DNA of 64,000 nt, taken from Acidobacteriota bacterium. GTDB lineage: Bacteria; Acidobacteriota; Terriglobia; Terriglobales; Acidobacteriaceae. Under the pieces are notes generated by a model. It worked only from the letters and a program-made list of their open reading frames with translations. It did no database searches and was not told where the DNA came from. How positions within the stretch are numbered: the first letter of the stretch is position 1; the number at the start of each line of letters is the position of its first letter. The DNA is taken from positions 1 to 64,000 of the forward strand of contig QIAM01000017.1 of the NCBI GenBank assembly GCA_003225555.1, given 5' to 3'. Of the stretch, positions 43,001-52,527 are shown piece after piece. The position numbers were made by a program, and so were the translations under genes.

Positions 43001-43901
43001 CTACTCGGGAGTCGCGGTAATCAAGGCAACCCTATTATCGTCCGTCGTTTCAAGAAAGGTGAAGCGCTCCGGATTCTGCGTGTAACACGCGAAACCAAGG
43101 CCAAGGGGTTGTTCTCCATCCTTCGCTGCCGGTTCATAATGCGTCGCGACAGTGCGACCGTTCAAATCGACAACCTTAATAATCTGTTCGTAGGTCTGGG
43201 GTTGCCAAAACATCACGGCGATTCTGTTTCCCGAGATATGCATGGATTCAGGCATGAAGTCGTCCCGGCCCGGATCCACTTCGAATCGGCGGACCGAACC
43301 GCCGGTGGAGATCGCATAAAAGATGGCGTGAGCAAGTCTACGCATAAGATATACGTTGCCATCGGGTCCGGTTTCCGCTTCCCCTCTTCCGACCGCATAG
43401 TTAATCGAAGGGGCTTCGGGCGATGTCACTTTGGGATCGCCGGAAGCAGCCATGTCGTGGATTTCCTGATCGTCCTTCAGCGTAAGTTCTCTCCTCAGTG
43501 TCCCGTCAGAGGAAAAAATGCCGGTGAATGGCCACATGGTTTTGTTGTTTCGGTCCTTGTCGTATTCGAGCCCTGTTACCAACAAGTCGCCATTTTGGAA
43601 AACTGCAATCTTGGAGGGGGAGAAGGGAAATCCAGGTTGCATTTTAGCTCGGACTTGACGCTTCCGTCTCTGTTGTAAGTGAATCGTATCGCGTGATCTC
43701 CAGTGCGAAGATCAATTGATATAAATCTCCGTTCGGCGCGAGCGCAAAGGCACCGGCGGCGTTAACCTTAACATCGGCTGAGTTCGCCCGGAAGATTGCT
43801 ACCCTCTCTCCCTTACTGCTCAGTTTGTGAAGCGCCTGGATGCAGTCCGGGGCAGTTCTGACATATAGATTTGCGTCGGCATCGGTGTCTAACCTTAACA
43901 T
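43001..43901 (-). pseudogene. Truncated and frameshifted beta-propeller-like protein
   Basis: The right part (43644-43901) reads MLRLDTDADANLYVRTAPDC and then GAFALAPNGDLYQLIFALEI, ending at a stop. The left part (43001-43642) continues the theme: KIAVFQNGDLLVTGLEY, TGIFSSDGTLRRELTL, ETGPDGNVYLMRRL. Between them a third frame reads IRFTYNRDGSVKSELK, the expected linking strand. Thus two shifts are needed near 43655 and 43690. One may be a five-base duplication (cgatacgattc), the other a lost A in ctaaaatg. The N-terminus also begins inside a propeller strand, without a signal peptide, so the 5' part is lost next to the blaI operator. Original role unknown. Confidence 0.6.
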
Positions 43902-43910
43902 TTCGTTTAT

Positions 43911-43950
43911 CTACGAAGATTTTCGTTGACACTACGAATACCTTCGTAGT
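43911..43950 (+). promoter_or_regulatory. Two BlaI/MecI-type dyad operators upstream of the repressor gene
   Basis: Operator 1: CTACGAA-gatt-TTCGTTG (43911-43928), imperfect in one base. Operator 2: ACTACGAA-tacc-TTCGTAGT (43931-43950), a perfect dyad that ends one base before the first ATG of the repressor frame. The centres are 21 bp apart, two helical turns, so both repressor dimers would lie on one face. BlaI/MecI repressors bind TACxxxxGTA-like dyads in this arrangement and control their own operon. Function is inferred from position and symmetry. Confidence 0.75.
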
Positions 43951-43962
43951 ATGGTCTTCTTC

Positions 43963-44349
43963 ATGAAGCAGGTACCGCAGAAACCCACCGCTTCCGAACT
44001 CGAAATCCTGCGCATCCTCTGGACACGCGGCCCTTCGACAGTTCGCAAAGTTTACGACGCTCTCCGCGAGAAGAAGACCCTCGGCTACACCAGCGTCCTG
44101 AAGCTTCTGCAGATCATGACCACAAAAGGAACGGTTCGCCGAAACGAAACCCAGCGCGCGCACATCTATGAAGCGTGCCTGCCCGCCGAACAGACCAAGC
44201 GCCAACTTGCCGGAGACATGTTGCAAAGGGTATTCGAAGGCTCCGCCAGCCAGCTCATGATGCATGCGCTCGCCGGACGCCGGGCCTCACGCGAAGAGGT
44301 TGAAGAACTCCGCCGCTTGCTGGACGAATATGAAAGGAGCCGGCGATGA
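43963..44349 (+). CDS. blaI: BlaI/MecI/CopY-family transcriptional repressor
   Basis: The frame opens at ATG 43951, but that codon abuts the operator; ATG 43963 (MKQVPQKPTASEL) matches the family. The winged helix carries ASELEILRILWTRGPSTVRKVYDAL and GYTSVLKLLQIMTTKGTVRRNE, and the dimerisation tail has GDMLQRVFEGSASQLMMHAL followed by LRRLLDEYE. BlaI proteins repress until an M56 protease cleaves them after sensing a ligand. The stop overlaps the start of the M56 gene by four bases (tgATGA type), so the two are translationally coupled. Confidence 0.92.
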   Translation: MKQVPQKPTASELEILRILWTRGPSTVRKVYDALREKKTLGYTSVLKLLQIMTTKGTVRRNETQRAHIYEACLPAEQTKRQLAGDMLQRVFEGSASQLMMHALAGRRASREEVEELRRLLDEYERSRR

Positions 44350-46385
44350 CGAACTGGCTTTCACCGACCACCATGCACTCCCTAGGATGGACTCTCGTAC
44401 ATTTTCTCTGGCAAGGTACAGCCGCTGCGGCCCTGGCTGCGGCCACGATGGCGCTCTGCCGCCGCGCCTCCGTTCGCTACGTGATCGGAGTGAGCGCGTT
44501 GCTATTGATGCTCGCCGCTCCTGTGGCCACGTTGTTGCTCCTGACCCAGTCGGGCTCAAGCTCCGCCGAGAAACCGTCCGCACGGGTTGCGCGATTGCAA
44601 GCACTTCCGTCTGTCACCGGAGCACGCTTTTCTGCGCAAGTCGCGGCCAGTACCTCGTCGCCTGATGCGCTCCCCTGGCTAGTTGAAGCCTGGTTGGTCG
44701 GCGTCGCTTTCTTCAGCCTGCGCACCGCCGGCGGATTCCTTCTGCTCGAACGTCAGCAGCGCAAACGGTCCATTGCAGTAACTGGCAGGCGGCTTGAGAT
44801 CTGCCGAACGCTGCAAAGCCGCCTCGGACTGAGCCGCGCCATCCGTTTCTGCGAGTGCGCATGGCTGCAAGCGCCCGCGGTCATTGGCTGGTTCCGTCCC
44901 GTCGTGCTTCTCCCGATTGTGGCGCTCACCGGGTTATCGGAGGACCAACTCCAATCCGTCATCGCCCACGAGTTAGCCCACATCAAGCGCCTCGACGCCT
45001 TCGTCAACGTTTTCCAAGTCTGCGTAGAAACGTTGCTCTTCTATCACCCAGCCGTGTGGTGGCTGAACAAACGCATTCGCGCTGAACGCGAGCACTGCTG
45101 CGACGACATGGCCGTCTCCCTTTGCGGAAACGCGGTCGAGTACGCCCGCGCGCTAACGATCATGGAAGGATGGCACACCGCTCCAGCTCTCGCCATGGCC
45201 GCAAACCGAGGTCCGCTCGCTGAACGAGTCGTGCGCCTGCTGGGCATGAAATCCGTTCGCAACACTACGCTCAAAGTTGGACTCGCAGGCAGTGTGGTCT
45301 GCCTGGGCGCTGCCCTGATCGCCGGTAACACTCTCGTAGCAATGGCCTTTCCGAAACCAGCCGCGGGCGCAAGGGACGCTTCGCTTCTCCAGCTCGGTTT
45401 TAGGCCAAAGTCAGCCCCGGCACAGGCTCCGTCAGCAACTCCGGTGGTTACTCCTACGCCCGCTGGCAAGCCTTCTCTTGCCCAGTCTTCGCGGCCTGTC
45501 GAGCAACCAGTCGCCGCCCAGTCCTACGTCGATGCGATGAAATCCGTGGGCCTCACCGACCTGAGCGCCGACGACCTGGTCGCTCTCAAGATTCAGGGCG
45601 TCACACCTGAATACGTTCGCGGAATGCTTGACCTGGGCCTGCATGCCGATGCGGACGGCTTCGTCGCCATGCGTGTGCAAGGCGTAACCCCGGAATATAT
45701 CCGCGACCTTCGCGCCCTCGGCTTCACCCCCGACCAGGATCGGATCATTGCCTTCAAGGTCCAGGGCGTGAACGCCGATTACGTGCGAGGCCTGAAAGAA
45801 GTGGGAATCCAAGGAGACGCAGACCAGATCATCGCGCTAAGAGTGCAAGGCGTAAGCCCGGCCTACGTTCGTGAATTGAAAGACATCGGCATCCAGGGCG
45901 ACGGCGATCAGATCGTCGCACTGAAAGTCCAGGGAGTCACTCCTGCCTACGTTCGCGACATGCGCGCTGCCGGCCTGATCGTGGACTCCGATGACGTAGT
46001 TGCCCTTAAGGTGCAAGGAGTTACAGCAGAGTATGTGAATGGCCTCAAAGCGCTAGGCCTGAAGCCCAGCACAGACGACGTAGTCGGGATGCGCGTCCAA
46101 GGCGTAACTCCAGAGTACATCCGCGACATTCGGGCCCTCGGCCTCAATCCCAGTGTCGACGAAATCATCGGCATGCGAGTGCAAGGCGTCACGCCCGAAT
46201 TCATCAAGACCCTGCAATCCGCCGGATTCAAACCCGATGTCGACGACGTAATCGACGCCAAGGTACAAGGCGTCACGCCCGAATTCATCGAACAAGCCCG
46301 CAAACACGGCTTCCAAAACCTGACGATCGAGAAACTAATCGAGCTCAAACACATAGGCGTCCTAGACGCAAAGGGTGATATTTAG
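44346..46385 (+). CDS. BlaR1-like M56 membrane protease with ten periplasmic 28-residue repeats
   Basis: 679 residues. Transmembrane helices lie at about 12-35, 44-66 and 112-134, and a fourth (TTLKVGLAGSVVCLGAALIAG) follows the protease. Zinc site: HELAH at 208-212 and the glutamate cluster AEREHCCDD at 246-254. The cytoplasmic zinc domain of M56 cuts its BlaI partner. A Pro/Ala linker leads to residues 394-679, ten tandem units with consensus YVRxhxxhGhxxDxDxhhALKVQGVTPE. BlaR1 and MecR1 carry a penicillin-binding sensor here; none is present. I infer the repeats are the sensor, with ligand unknown. The repressor gene is four-base-overlapped upstream and a secreted protein with the same repeats follows. 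Confidence 0.9.
   Translation: MTNWLSPTTMHSLGWTLVHFLWQGTAAAALAAATMALCRRASVRYVIGVSALLLMLAAPVATLLLLTQSGSSSAEKPSARVARLQALPSVTGARFSAQVAASTSSPDALPWLVEAWLVGVAFFSLRTAGGFLLLERQQRKRSIAVTGRRLEICRTLQSRLGLSRAIRFCECAWLQAPAVIGWFRPVVLLPIVALTGLSEDQLQSVIAHELAHIKRLDAFVNVFQVCVETLLFYHPAVWWLNKRIRAEREHCCDDMAVSLCGNAVEYARALTIMEGWHTAPALAMAANRGPLAERVVRLLGMKSVRNTTLKVGLAGSVVCLGAALIAGNTLVAMAFPKPAAGARDASLLQLGFRPKSAPAQAPSATPVVTPTPAGKPSLAQSSRPVEQPVAAQSYVDAMKSVGLTDLSADDLVALKIQGVTPEYVRGMLDLGLHADADGFVAMRVQGVTPEYIRDLRALGFTPDQDRIIAFKVQGVNADYVRGLKEVGIQGDADQIIALRVQGVSPAYVRELKDIGIQGDGDQIVALKVQGVTPAYVRDMRAAGLIVDSDDVVALKVQGVTAEYVNGLKALGLKPSTDDVVGMRVQGVTPEYIRDIRALGLNPSVDEIIGMRVQGVTPEFIKTLQSAGFKPDVDDVIDAKVQGVTPEFIEQARKHGFQNLTIEKLIELKHIGVLDAKGDI
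45525..46382 (+). repeat. Tandem 28-residue (84-bp) coding repeats in the M56 protein
   Basis: Ten units, the first 29 residues long, most of the others 28; about 84 bp each. Each predicts two short helices: YVRGLKxxG and DxVVALKVQ. GVTPE lies at the joint. The last unit, FIEQARKHGFQNLTIEKLIEL, has a different second half (QNLTI). Phrases vary at synonymous and conservative sites, so the array is not a recent expansion. Confidence 0.85.
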
Positions 46386-46402
46386 GCAGCATTACGAACC
46401 AC

Positions 46403-46473
46403 GTAGAGACAGCCGCCTCGGCTGTCCCGCCCGTGCCTGCCCTGAGCTAGTCGAAGGGGCGAAGCCCAGGCGG
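46403..46473 (+). repeat. Dispersed GACAGCC repeat, copy C3
   Basis: GTAGAGACAGCCGCCTCGGC start, CCTGCCCTGAGC...TCGAAGGGGCGAAGCCCAGG end. It fills the gap between the M56 gene and the secreted repeat protein and shares its start with copy C4 (52482) and its end with copy C2 (35773). Confidence 0.7.
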
Positions 46474-46485
46474 AAAGGAAATAAA

Positions 46486-47427
46486 ATGCGATTCCGGCAA
46501 ACCGCAGCCTTCCTGATCTTTGCCTCGTGTCTGCTCTTCGGCGTCTTGAAGAACCAAGCCGCCGAAGTCCGCAGCGGCAACTGGACCCTGGGCAAGTCCG
46601 ACGAACCGGGCAAAGTCGAATTCTCCCTGATCGAGCATCACCACGGCGGCACCTCGACTCACGAGTCCGACTGGTCCACCAGCCTGTTCGCAGGCGTCGA
46701 CTTCTCCAAGCCTGGACGCCAGGACGTGCACTTCACCATCTCGCGCGATGCCGGCAAAATCGACTGCGAGGGCTTTCTCAACGACGGGGAGGGTGCCGGC
46801 ATCTTTCACTTTCAGCCTGACCCGAACTACGCGCGCGAAATGCAGGCGATCGGCTTCCCGGTCGACGACGAGAAGCAATACAGCATGGCGGTTCAGGATG
46901 TCAGTCTCGAGTTCGCTCGCCAGATGAAGAACGAGCACCTCGACGACCTCGACACCGATAAGCTGATCGCATTCCGCATCTTCAACGTCAATGCCGCATT
47001 CATCGAGGAACTGCGCGCCGCGGGCCTGAAGATTTCCGACAGCGACAAGCTGGTCGCATTCCGCATCCACGGCGTAACCCCGCAGATGATCCGCACCCTG
47101 CACCAGGCCGGCTATTCACCCGACGAAGACACCTTGATCGCAATGAGAATCCACGGCGCCACACCGGAATGGATCGCGGAACTGAAGAAGCGCGGCTACG
47201 ACCACGTCGACCTGGAACAGCTGATCGCCTTCCGTATTCACGGCGTCTCGCCCGAGTTCATCGAAAAGCTGCAAGGCCTGGGCTACAAGCATCCCGACCC
47301 AGATCAACTTGTGACCATGCGAATCCACAACGTCACGCCCGAGTACATCAGCAACATGCGCACCCACGGCATGCAAAACCTGACCATCGATCAACTGGTG
47401 AACATGCGAATCCACGGCATCGATTAA
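46486..47427 (+). CDS. Secreted protein with seven 28-residue repeats, partner of the M56 protein
   Basis: I chose ATG 46486 (MRFRQTAAFLIFASCLLFG) because AAGGAA lies upstream and it gives a signal peptide; the longer frame contains the translated C3 repeat. The mature part first has a beta-rich domain (RSGNWTLGKS, KVEFSLIEHHHGGTSTHE, FDVHFTISRDAGKIDCEGF-like), residues about 27-110. Residues 115-313 are seven repeats with consensus FIxxLxxxGYxxxDxDxLIAFRIHGVTPE. The final unit, QNLTIDQLVNM, matches the final M56 unit (QNLTIEKLIEL). No enzyme motif is visible. I infer it lies in the periplasm and contacts, copies or competes with the M56 sensor tail. Confidence 0.75.
   Translation: MRFRQTAAFLIFASCLLFGVLKNQAAEVRSGNWTLGKSDEPGKVEFSLIEHHHGGTSTHESDWSTSLFAGVDFSKPGRQDVHFTISRDAGKIDCEGFLNDGEGAGIFHFQPDPNYAREMQAIGFPVDDEKQYSMAVQDVSLEFARQMKNEHLDDLDTDKLIAFRIFNVNAAFIEELRAAGLKISDSDKLVAFRIHGVTPQMIRTLHQAGYSPDEDTLIAMRIHGATPEWIAELKKRGYDHVDLEQLIAFRIHGVSPEFIEKLQGLGYKHPDPDQLVTMRIHNVTPEYISNMRTHGMQNLTIDQLVNMRIHGID
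46828..47424 (+). repeat. Tandem 28-29 residue coding repeats in the secreted partner
   Basis: Seven units of 27-29 residues, the first degenerate (YAREMQAIGFPVDDEKQYSM). The consensus has IHGVTPE where the M56 protein has VQGVTPE. Last unit QNLTI, as in the M56 array. Confidence 0.8.
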
Positions 47428-47508
47428 GCCAATCCGCACACCACGAAAAGCCACCTCATAAGTTGGTCTTGAAAGGCGATGGTCTTTGAAGGGAACGGTT
47501 TTGAAAGG

Positions 47509-47575
47509 GTGCGGCTCAAGCCGCGCCGTGAGAGCCATTAAAGACGCGGGCTTTAGCCCCTGAGGGAAGCGCATT
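47509..47575 (-). repeat. Dispersed GGCTAAAGCC repeat, copy B2
   Basis: On the minus strand: CCTCAGGGGCTAAAGCCCGC, a spacer, then GGCGCGGCTTGAGCCGC. Same plan as B1; relative to B3 (CCTCAGCGGCTAAAGCCGC) the stem bases are changed in a paired way. Confidence 0.6.
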
Positions 47576-47638
47576 CCCCGCCCATGGCACAGTGGTACTA
47601 GCCGAAAGGGACTACCCACAGCCCCCTATGGCGCCGCG

Positions 47639-47848
47639 TTGCCGGCTGTAGCACTCTGTCAGGTGCCCTTCCCACGACTCGACGAACGCATCCGCGAACT
47701 CTGCGCCAAGGCCGTCACGGTGCCAGAAGCCGAATTGGAAGCAATCCTTAGAGAACTCAACTCTGCGCTCCGCGAACACACCATGCAGCTCAGAAAACTG
47801 GCTGCCACGAAACTTGCCGGCAGAGACAAACCACCAGAAAGCTCCTAA
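47639..47848 (+). CDS. Small helical protein of unknown function
   Basis: 69 residues at most (TTG 47639), or 61 from GTG 47663 (MPFPRLDERIRELCA). It is amphipathic-helical: ERIRELCAKAVTVPEAELEA and AILRELNSALREHTMQLRKL. Small proteins of this pattern are frequent in Acidobacteria. No clear ribosome site. It lies between repeats B2 and A2. Confidence 0.5.
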   Translation: MPAVALCQVPFPRLDERIRELCAKAVTVPEAELEAILRELNSALREHTMQLRKLAATKLAGRDKPPESS

Positions 47849-52481: not shown

Positions 52482-52527
52482 GTAGAGACAGCCGCCTCGC
52501 CTGTCCGGCGAGGGCGAAGCCCAGCCG
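52482..52527 (+). repeat. Dispersed GACAGCC repeat, copy C4
   Basis: GTAGAGACAGCCGCCTCGCC start, identical to C3 except for one G/C change in the stem, then a shortened end GGCGAAGCCCAGCC. Just after the BNR-protein stop. Confidence 0.65.

What the first reader, a model, noticed from the sequence alone, without database searches (positions are those of the whole stretch)
43911..47427. BlaI / M56 protease operon with a novel repeat sensor and a secreted partner sharing the repeats
Seen: a BlaI repressor, four-base overlap with an M56 protease, whose tail after the last membrane helix is ten 28-residue repeats, then a signal-peptide protein with seven repeats of the same family. Known: in BlaR1/MecR1 this position holds a penicillin-binding sensor and the cytoplasmic HExxH cuts BlaI. 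Inference: here the repeats replace the sensor, and the secreted partner is a ligand, co-receptor or decoy. I know of no described function for this repeat.
Basis: partly seen in the sequence, partly recalled or inferred. Interest (0 to 1): 0.88.

Follow-up and report, generated by a model that had tools for sequence, protein, structure and literature searches.

The report
Solenoid-sensor BlaI/M56 switch with secreted partner
A three-gene bacterial switch of the kind that senses penicillin has here swapped its penicillin sensor for a helical-repeat domain, and the gene it appears to turn on makes a secreted protein built from the same repeats, suggesting that receptor and product act on the same, still unknown, target outside the cell.

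Summary
In detail: BlaI repressor, ATGA overlap, M56 protease with intact HExxH...E and ten 28-residue repeats after its last membrane helix, then a secreted protein with an unmatched beta domain and seven repeats of the same family. No credible family covers the repeats; AlphaFold makes them a two-helix solenoid. The trio recurs in Acidobacteriota, Myxococcota and Alphaproteobacteria: 57 of 80 loci in named records are complete trios, 13 more keep receptor plus partner.

New here: BlaI's promoter holds two operator dyads around the -35 box. In five myxobacteria where the partner gene lies away from blaI-M56, the partner has its own double operator, and the 10-12 Mb genome holds exactly two perfect operators, one per transcript. 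So the secreted protein looks like the regulated output, as beta-lactamase is in bla, rather than only a ligand or decoy. Four genomes keep the partner with no repeat-bearing receptor detected; five loci fuse the partner's domains onto M56. The promoter is not exclusive: in Terriglobia, sibling BlaI-M56 pairs with other tails use it too. The ligand is unknown. New variant of a known kind.

The parts
43910..43929 (+). operator 1 (TCTACGAAGATTTTCGTTGA), imperfect dyad that runs into the -35 box
43931..43950 (+). operator 2, perfect palindrome ACTACGAA-TACC-TTCGTAGT between -35 and -10, 21 bp from operator 1
   Evidence: in the own genome no other site within 2 mismatches of its 16 fixed bases
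43926..43955 (+). promoter TTGACA-18-TATGGT
   Evidence: arrangement shared by 48 of 58 relatives
43963..44349 (+). BlaI/MecI-family repressor (ORF from 43951; probable start 43963, near-leaderless)
44346..46385 (+). M56 receptor-protease, 679 aa
44967..44981 (+). HELAH zinc motif (residues 208-212); H208, E209, H212 and E249 invariant in 50 aligned receptors
45261..45347 (+). last membrane helix (residues 306-334)
45522..46382 (+). extracytoplasmic solenoid: ten 28-residue helical hairpins (residues 393-679)
46408..46426 (+). hairpin element GACAGCCGCCTCGGCTGTC in the M56-partner gap; probably not part of the system
46486..47427 (+). secreted partner, 313 aa: signal peptide, beta domain, seven repeats
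46570..46818 (+). partner N-terminal beta domain (residues 29-111, six strands)
46825..47424 (+). partner solenoid, seven 27-29-residue units (residues 114-313)

Best explanation
It is a self-contained BlaI/M56 induction circuit whose sensor is a helical-repeat solenoid and whose main output is a secreted protein made of a beta domain plus the same kind of solenoid. BlaI binds two operators around the -35 box and shuts the operon. An extracytoplasmic event (ligand unknown) acts on the solenoid of the M56 protein; its cytoplasmic zinc protease inactivates BlaI; the operon is derepressed and the solenoid protein is exported, where it acts on the same target the receptor senses. This is the logic of bla, in which the BlaR1 sensor resembles the class D beta-lactamases, with both penicillin-binding parts replaced. 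Shown by sequence comparison: gene order, intact protease motif, shared repeats, conserved dyads, and dyads at unlinked partner genes. Inferred: topology, BlaI binding and cleavage, shared target, effector role.
For: Trio conserved: of 80 loci in named records, 57 complete trios, 13 more receptor+partner (11 cut by contig edges, 1 with a frame-split partner, 1 without detected BlaI), 2 fused, 6 standalone, 2 uninformative (the tool kept the best 80 of 106). Of 40 loci from 38 unnamed Terriglobia genomes: 32 trios, 2 receptor+partner at contig edges, 2 BlaI+M56 at contig ends, 3 fused, 1 standalone. Composite promoter upstream of 48 of 58 BlaI genes, 3 more loosely. Perfect TACGAANNNNTTCGTA occurs once in 14 of 17 and twice in 3 of 17 genomes, by coordinates always including the operon promoter; reversed-pattern control 0 in 14, 1 in 3. 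In 5 of 5 myxobacteria with an unlinked partner: exactly 2 sites per genome, one before blaI-M56, one before the partner, control 0. Composite promoter in 48 of 146 Myxococcota, control 0; by hand comparison these are 48 of the 49 genomes with the proteins and none of the 97 without. BlaR1 sensor related to class D beta-lactamases (PMC9834060, passages; PMC7593790, passages).
Against: No ligand, cleavage or binding was measured. In Terriglobia the composite promoter is not exclusive: it occurs in 58 of 299 genomes, 41 with and 17 without a P0003 match; of 14 of those 17 that I inspected, 13 have it before a BlaI gene of a pair without the repeats. With one mismatch, sites exceed the control (163 against 95 in 17 genomes); the two dyads of each operon explain up to half of the excess, so weak further targets are not excluded. 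Some genomes have other target genes. In G387 and G393 the blaI-side operator 1 is degenerate. L156, L158 and L162 have the genes without these dyads. G324 and G383 have the receptor but no detected partner. The fused forms suggest that the partner's domains can also sit in the sensor.
Confidence: 0.6

Rival explanations
1. The partner is mainly a co-receptor or feedback ligand: it docks through its solenoid on the receptor's solenoid, sets the protease's activity and is induced as part of a homeostatic loop.
For: Same repeat family in both proteins; fused M56-beta domain-repeat receptors without an adjacent partner (L085, L087, L152, L156, and L088 where I saw the beta domain by eye); strong co-occurrence.
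Against: Partner in 4 genomes with no repeat-bearing M56 detected (G194, G446, G447, G450; G194 is 94% complete, the others' completeness is not told); receptor without detected partner in 2 (G324, G383); no complex was modelled.
Confidence: 0.25
2. Both solenoids are general envelope-stress parts: the receptor senses misfolded or displaced envelope protein or polymer, and the partner is one of several secreted stress proteins of a small regulon.
For: Further genes behind operator-type sites mostly look extracytoplasmic: a DUF5916/CBM9_1 protein in G310, G330 and G417, a PF00144 serine hydrolase in G442, TPR plus S41-like proteins in G324 and G383, a TPR protein in G295 and a permease-like protein (named by eye) in G254.
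Against: Each extra target was seen in one to three genomes; 14 of 17 genomes carry a single perfect site.
Confidence: 0.3
3. It is an ordinary beta-lactam-responsive BlaR1 system whose tail is a mere spacer.
For: BlaI, M56, operator logic; G442 also has a beta-lactamase-superfamily gene behind a composite promoter.
Against: No penicillin-binding domain in P0002 or P0003 by Pfam or NCBIfam; NCBIfam blaR1_generic scores 76.4 against a cut-off of 400; no beta-lactamase in the operon.
Confidence: 0.05

Closest known systems
BlaR1/BlaI/BlaZ and MecR1/MecI (S. aureus)
   Same: BlaI-type repressor, M56 zinc protease with HExxH...E, C-terminal tail predicted outside, sensor resembling the regulated secreted product
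   Different: No penicillin-binding sensor, no beta-lactamase output; solenoid of 28-residue hairpins instead; output is a solenoid protein with an unmatched beta domain and no recognised enzyme motif
Sibling BlaI-M56 pairs of Acidobacteriota with DUF3738 or GPPDEIESH-type tails (L335, L337-L345, L347, L348)
   Same: Same composite promoter, same BlaI and M56 core
   Different: Other tail on the protease; no repeats, and no repeat partner in the fetched stretches
TAL, PPR, mTERF and designed helical-repeat solenoids
   Same: Stacked two-helix repeats; weak resemblance in fold (TAL 4ot0 E 8.9e-3; designed 8v2d E 7.3e-3) and in an HG-TPE motif (9ld1, a chain with TAL-like repeats, E 5.9e-7 summed over stretches none of which is significant; designed 8cws and 8cwy about 1e-4)
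   Different: A profile of 60 partners finds no chain at E under 0.03; different repeat length; extracytoplasmic here; the resemblance is probably convergent

Membership tests
BlaI/MecI repressor family (PF03965) | Pfam match over the cut-off | tested here: met
   95.2 bits against 22.6
BlaI/MecI repressor family (PF03965) | dyad at its own promoter | tested here: met
   binding itself not tested
M56 (BlaR1) peptidase family (PF05569) | Pfam match over the cut-off | tested here: met
   105.7 bits against 31
M56 (BlaR1) peptidase family (PF05569) | gluzincin HExxH...E motif | tested here: met
   H208, E209, H212, E249 invariant in 50 sequences
M56 (BlaR1) peptidase family (PF05569) | four membrane helices with protease inside and tail outside | tested here: inconclusive
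   AF2 helices 7-37, 41-74, 109-141, 306-334; a hydropathy scan found three of the four plus a segment in the protease; charges fit N-out/C-out; no experiment
BlaR1/MecR1 beta-lactam receptor | penicillin-binding sensor domain with SxxK | tested here: not met
   no such domain by Pfam or NCBIfam
BlaR1/MecR1 beta-lactam receptor | cleavage of the cognate BlaI on induction | not testable with these tools
   needs an experiment
LytB/IspH (PF02401) | match along the enzyme domain | tested here: not met
   P0003 scores 27.2 bits, just over the cut-off of 24.5, but over 42 of 267 positions of a repeated motif; 44 of 60 partners match at E up to 0.01

The most novel reading that the evidence does not exclude
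A widespread, undescribed class of induced extracytoplasmic defence: the sensor and the secreted product share a solenoid that binds the same foreign or damage-derived molecule, so the receptor reports it and the product neutralises it, as BlaR1 and beta-lactamase do for penicillin. It is one of several sensor modules plugged into a common BlaI-M56-double-operator chassis.
Probability: 0.35. Interest if true: 0.88.

Novelty: new variant of a known kind. Interest (0 to 1): 0.74.

Why it matters
BlaR1/MecR1 are the textbook case of transmembrane signalling by repressor cleavage and are thought of as antibiotic sensors. This system would show that the same chassis takes unrelated sensor modules, with the product matched to the sensor, in Acidobacteriota and myxobacteria. 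The unlinked partner genes give a testable regulon, and the shared solenoid gives a handle (pull-down with the secreted protein) for finding what M56 receptors outside the staphylococci sense.

Tried and rejected
Rejected: LytB/IspH (over the Pfam cut-off by 2.7 bits, but 42 of 267 positions), SAM_GIDA_C, Glycos_trans_3N, HHH_5 and similar Pfam hits to the repeats (short matches of a motif). Rejected: PDB fold matches of the partner (none at E up to 1e-3; TM-scores of the 50 rows shown are at most 0.35) and the sequence matches 9ld1, 8cws and 8cwy (no single stretch significant). Rejected for lack of evidence: a mobile or phage origin (no relative of P0003 in plasmids, phages or viral contigs) and an anti-phage label (no PADLOC match). 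Tried and dropped: a first repeat-unit regex that caught only 7 and 20 units, replaced. A position that looked role-specific (H in partner, Q in receptor repeats) holds in the Acidobacteriota sets but not in the alphaproteobacterial receptors; no myxobacterial receptor passed the script's filter. Claim withdrawn during the work: that the composite promoter marks only the repeat system; true in the Myxococcota sample, not in Terriglobia. Literature: nine searches of the held open-access library listed nothing whose title or abstract start concerns M56 proteins with such repeats; this is not proof of absence from print. PMC8265638 was looked at in passages and not used.

Full report
What is there. 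The window lies in a genome of 4.42 Mb in 114 contigs, 86% complete; the closest named relatives are Terriglobia and Acidobacteriaceae MAGs. Pfam gives Penicillinase_R and Peptidase_M56 over their cut-offs. The M56 tail holds ten units of 28 residues and the partner seven of 27-29. The own genome has two more M56 genes, and the repeats were found only at this locus. On the repeats, Pfam LYTB passes its cut-off (27.2 against 24.5 bits) over 42 of 267 positions; I take it as a chance match of a repeated motif. In the PDB by sequence, 9ld1 (TAL-like repeats) and two designed proteins match P0003 at E 6e-7 to 1e-4, but only as sums of stretches that are not significant alone, and a profile of 60 partners finds nothing under E 0.03.

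Structure. The partner model has mean pLDDT 93.5, pTM 0.83: a signal helix, six strands at 29-111, then paired short helices. The receptor model has pLDDT 85.2, pTM 0.52: four long helices, a zinc-protease core, a low-confidence linker at about 336-389 and a confident two-helix solenoid to the end. Foldseek matches the receptor core to S. aureus BlaR1 (8exq E 5.4e-5; 8exr target TM 0.59) and the tail to nothing significant, the best being a TAL effector at E 8.9e-3; the partner has no match at E up to 1e-3. Charges fit the BlaR1 topology, though a simple hydropathy scan recovered only three of the four helices. The N-out/C-out topology, the HEXXH...E motif and the relation of the BlaR1 sensor to class D beta-lactamases come from passages of PMC9834060.

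Distribution. P0003 matched 61 of 299 genomes of the class at E up to 1e-5, a count that includes receptor repeats. In 40 loci fetched from 38 of these genomes: 32 have BlaI, M56 and partner; 2 have receptor and partner at contig edges; 2 have BlaI and M56 at contig ends; 3 have beta domain and repeats fused to M56; 1 is a standalone partner. In 7 of the 32 (L067, L068, L079-L083) the partner was recognised by its repeats and position, the beta domain being missed by phmmer; the beta domain of the fused L088 was likewise seen by eye only. A scan of named genomes found 106 relatives, of which the tool kept 80: 57 complete trios, 1 trio with a frame-split partner (L137), 1 receptor plus partner without detected BlaI (L099), 11 receptor plus partner at contig edges, 2 fused (L152, L156), 6 standalone partners, 2 uninformative. 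Trios occur in records titled Acidobacteria, Hyalangium, Pyxidicoccus, Myxococcus, Parvularcula and Aquisalinus; a Gemmatimonadota MAG and a Betaproteobacteria record have standalone partners. In Myxococcota 49 of 146 genomes matched the partner profile; by reading its list, 41 have receptor and partner adjacent, 5 unlinked, 2 receptor only, 1 a partner at a contig edge. No relative was found in viral contigs, plasmids or phages.

Promoter. The only promoter-like site in 43700-47700 is TTGACA-18-TATGGT; shuffles give 0.9 such sites, so its weight comes from conservation. A perfect palindrome fills the gap between the boxes and a second dyad ends in the -35 box, 21 bp upstream. Upstream of 58 BlaI genes of the named loci, 48 have the exact composite TTCGTTGA-N2-5-TACGAANNNNTTCGTA, 3 a looser form, and 7 neither: four alphaproteobacteria, which have CTACATTTGTAG-type dyads instead by eye, and L156, L158 and L162. 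The perfect 12-base palindrome TACGAANNNNTTCGTA occurs once in 14 and twice in 3 of 17 genomes, by coordinates every time including the operon promoter. With one mismatch allowed the totals are 163 against 95 in the control (sums by hand), so weaker targets may exist.

The natural experiment. In five myxobacterial genomes (G441, G445, G414, G387, G393; probably two lineages by sequence similarity) the partner lies far from blaI-M56. In all five its promoter has its own double operator, and each 10-12 Mb genome has exactly two perfect palindromes, one before each transcript; the control finds none. In G387 and G393 operator 1 on the blaI side is degenerate. G321 has a second, unlinked partner copy with the double operator; its only perfect palindrome is at that copy. 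Four genomes with a standalone partner gave no repeat-bearing M56 at E up to 1e-5 (G194, G446, G447, G450), and no such palindrome lies in their fetched loci (L148, L149, L150, L169); the other two standalone loci (L153, L164) lack it too, in genomes that do have M56 proteins with repeat matches. The composite promoter occurs in 48 of 146 Myxococcota genomes, control 0; comparing lists by hand these are all but one (G396) of the 49 protein-positive genomes and none of the 97 others.

Other targets and siblings. Of the 7 Myxococcota genomes with two composite sites, three (G441, G445, G414) have the second at the unlinked partner. In G310, G330 and G417 it precedes a roughly 880-codon open frame; the two that I scanned (G310, G417) have DUF5916 over its cut-off and a CBM9_1 match at the cut-off. 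In G442 it precedes an apparently secreted PF00144 serine hydrolase; a further perfect palindrome of G442 (L253) was not assigned to a gene. In G324 and G383, which gave no partner, a second palindrome lies just upstream of a TPR plus S41-like protein with an apparent signal peptide (Pfam on the G324 copy); it lacks the composite layout. In Terriglobia the composite promoter occurs in 58 of 299 genomes (59 sites), 41 with and 17 without a P0003 match, control 0. I fetched 15 of its sites, 11 of them from the 17: 13 head a BlaI gene (12 with a detected M56), none with the repeats; 2, both in P0003-positive genomes, head other genes, a TPR protein (L346, G295) and a permease-like protein (L349, G254). 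Three more of the 17 were seen: two head BlaI-M56 pairs, one (G048) no recognised gene; three were not looked at. The sibling tails include DUF3738 (L344 by Pfam, L348 by eye) and a GPPDEIESH-type tail with no Pfam match. So the operator belongs to a BlaI-M56 chassis that carries different tails.

How it most likely works. BlaI represses; the solenoid outside senses; the M56 protease inactivates BlaI; the secreted solenoid protein is made. That the partner is a controlled output is supported by its own operators when unlinked; that it can act without this receptor is supported by four genomes. That sensor and product share their target is inferred by analogy with BlaR1 and beta-lactamases. Fusion of the partner's domains to M56 in five loci shows that they can stand in the sensor position, which keeps a co-receptor or feedback role open.

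Limits. Everything is comparative. Many genomes are MAGs, so absence is weak evidence. The locus choice selects for partner repeats. Structures are predictions and no complex was modelled.

Noticed in passing
43001-43901: Two minus-strand ORFs (43001-43642 and 43644-43901) look, by eye, like one gene broken by a frame change just upstream of the BlaI promoter; described only.
   Followed up: no
46408-46426 and 52487-52505: Short hairpin element GACAGCCGCCTCGGCTGTC, two copies in the window at up to 2 mismatches (none in 100 shuffles); near-identical words appear upstream of BlaI in L094, L100 and L105, so it looks like a dispersed repeat.
   Followed up: partly
L087 and L088 (G058, G266): Fused M56-beta domain-repeat paralogues in genomes that also have a three-gene operon elsewhere.
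   Followed up: partly
L335, L337-L345, L347, L348: BlaI-M56 pairs with the same composite promoter but other tails (DUF3738, GPPDEIESH-type), one followed by an HtrA-like protease gene (L347, named by eye): a family of sensor-swapped M56 receptors.
   Followed up: partly
L302, L303, L304: A DUF5916/CBM9_1-type gene behind a composite BlaI-type promoter in three myxobacterial genomes (Pfam run on two of the three).
   Followed up: partly
P0003 and relatives: 44 of 60 partners hit Pfam LYTB at E up to 0.01 through the repeat motif, so such proteins risk being misnamed as LytB/IspH in automatic annotation.
   Followed up: partly
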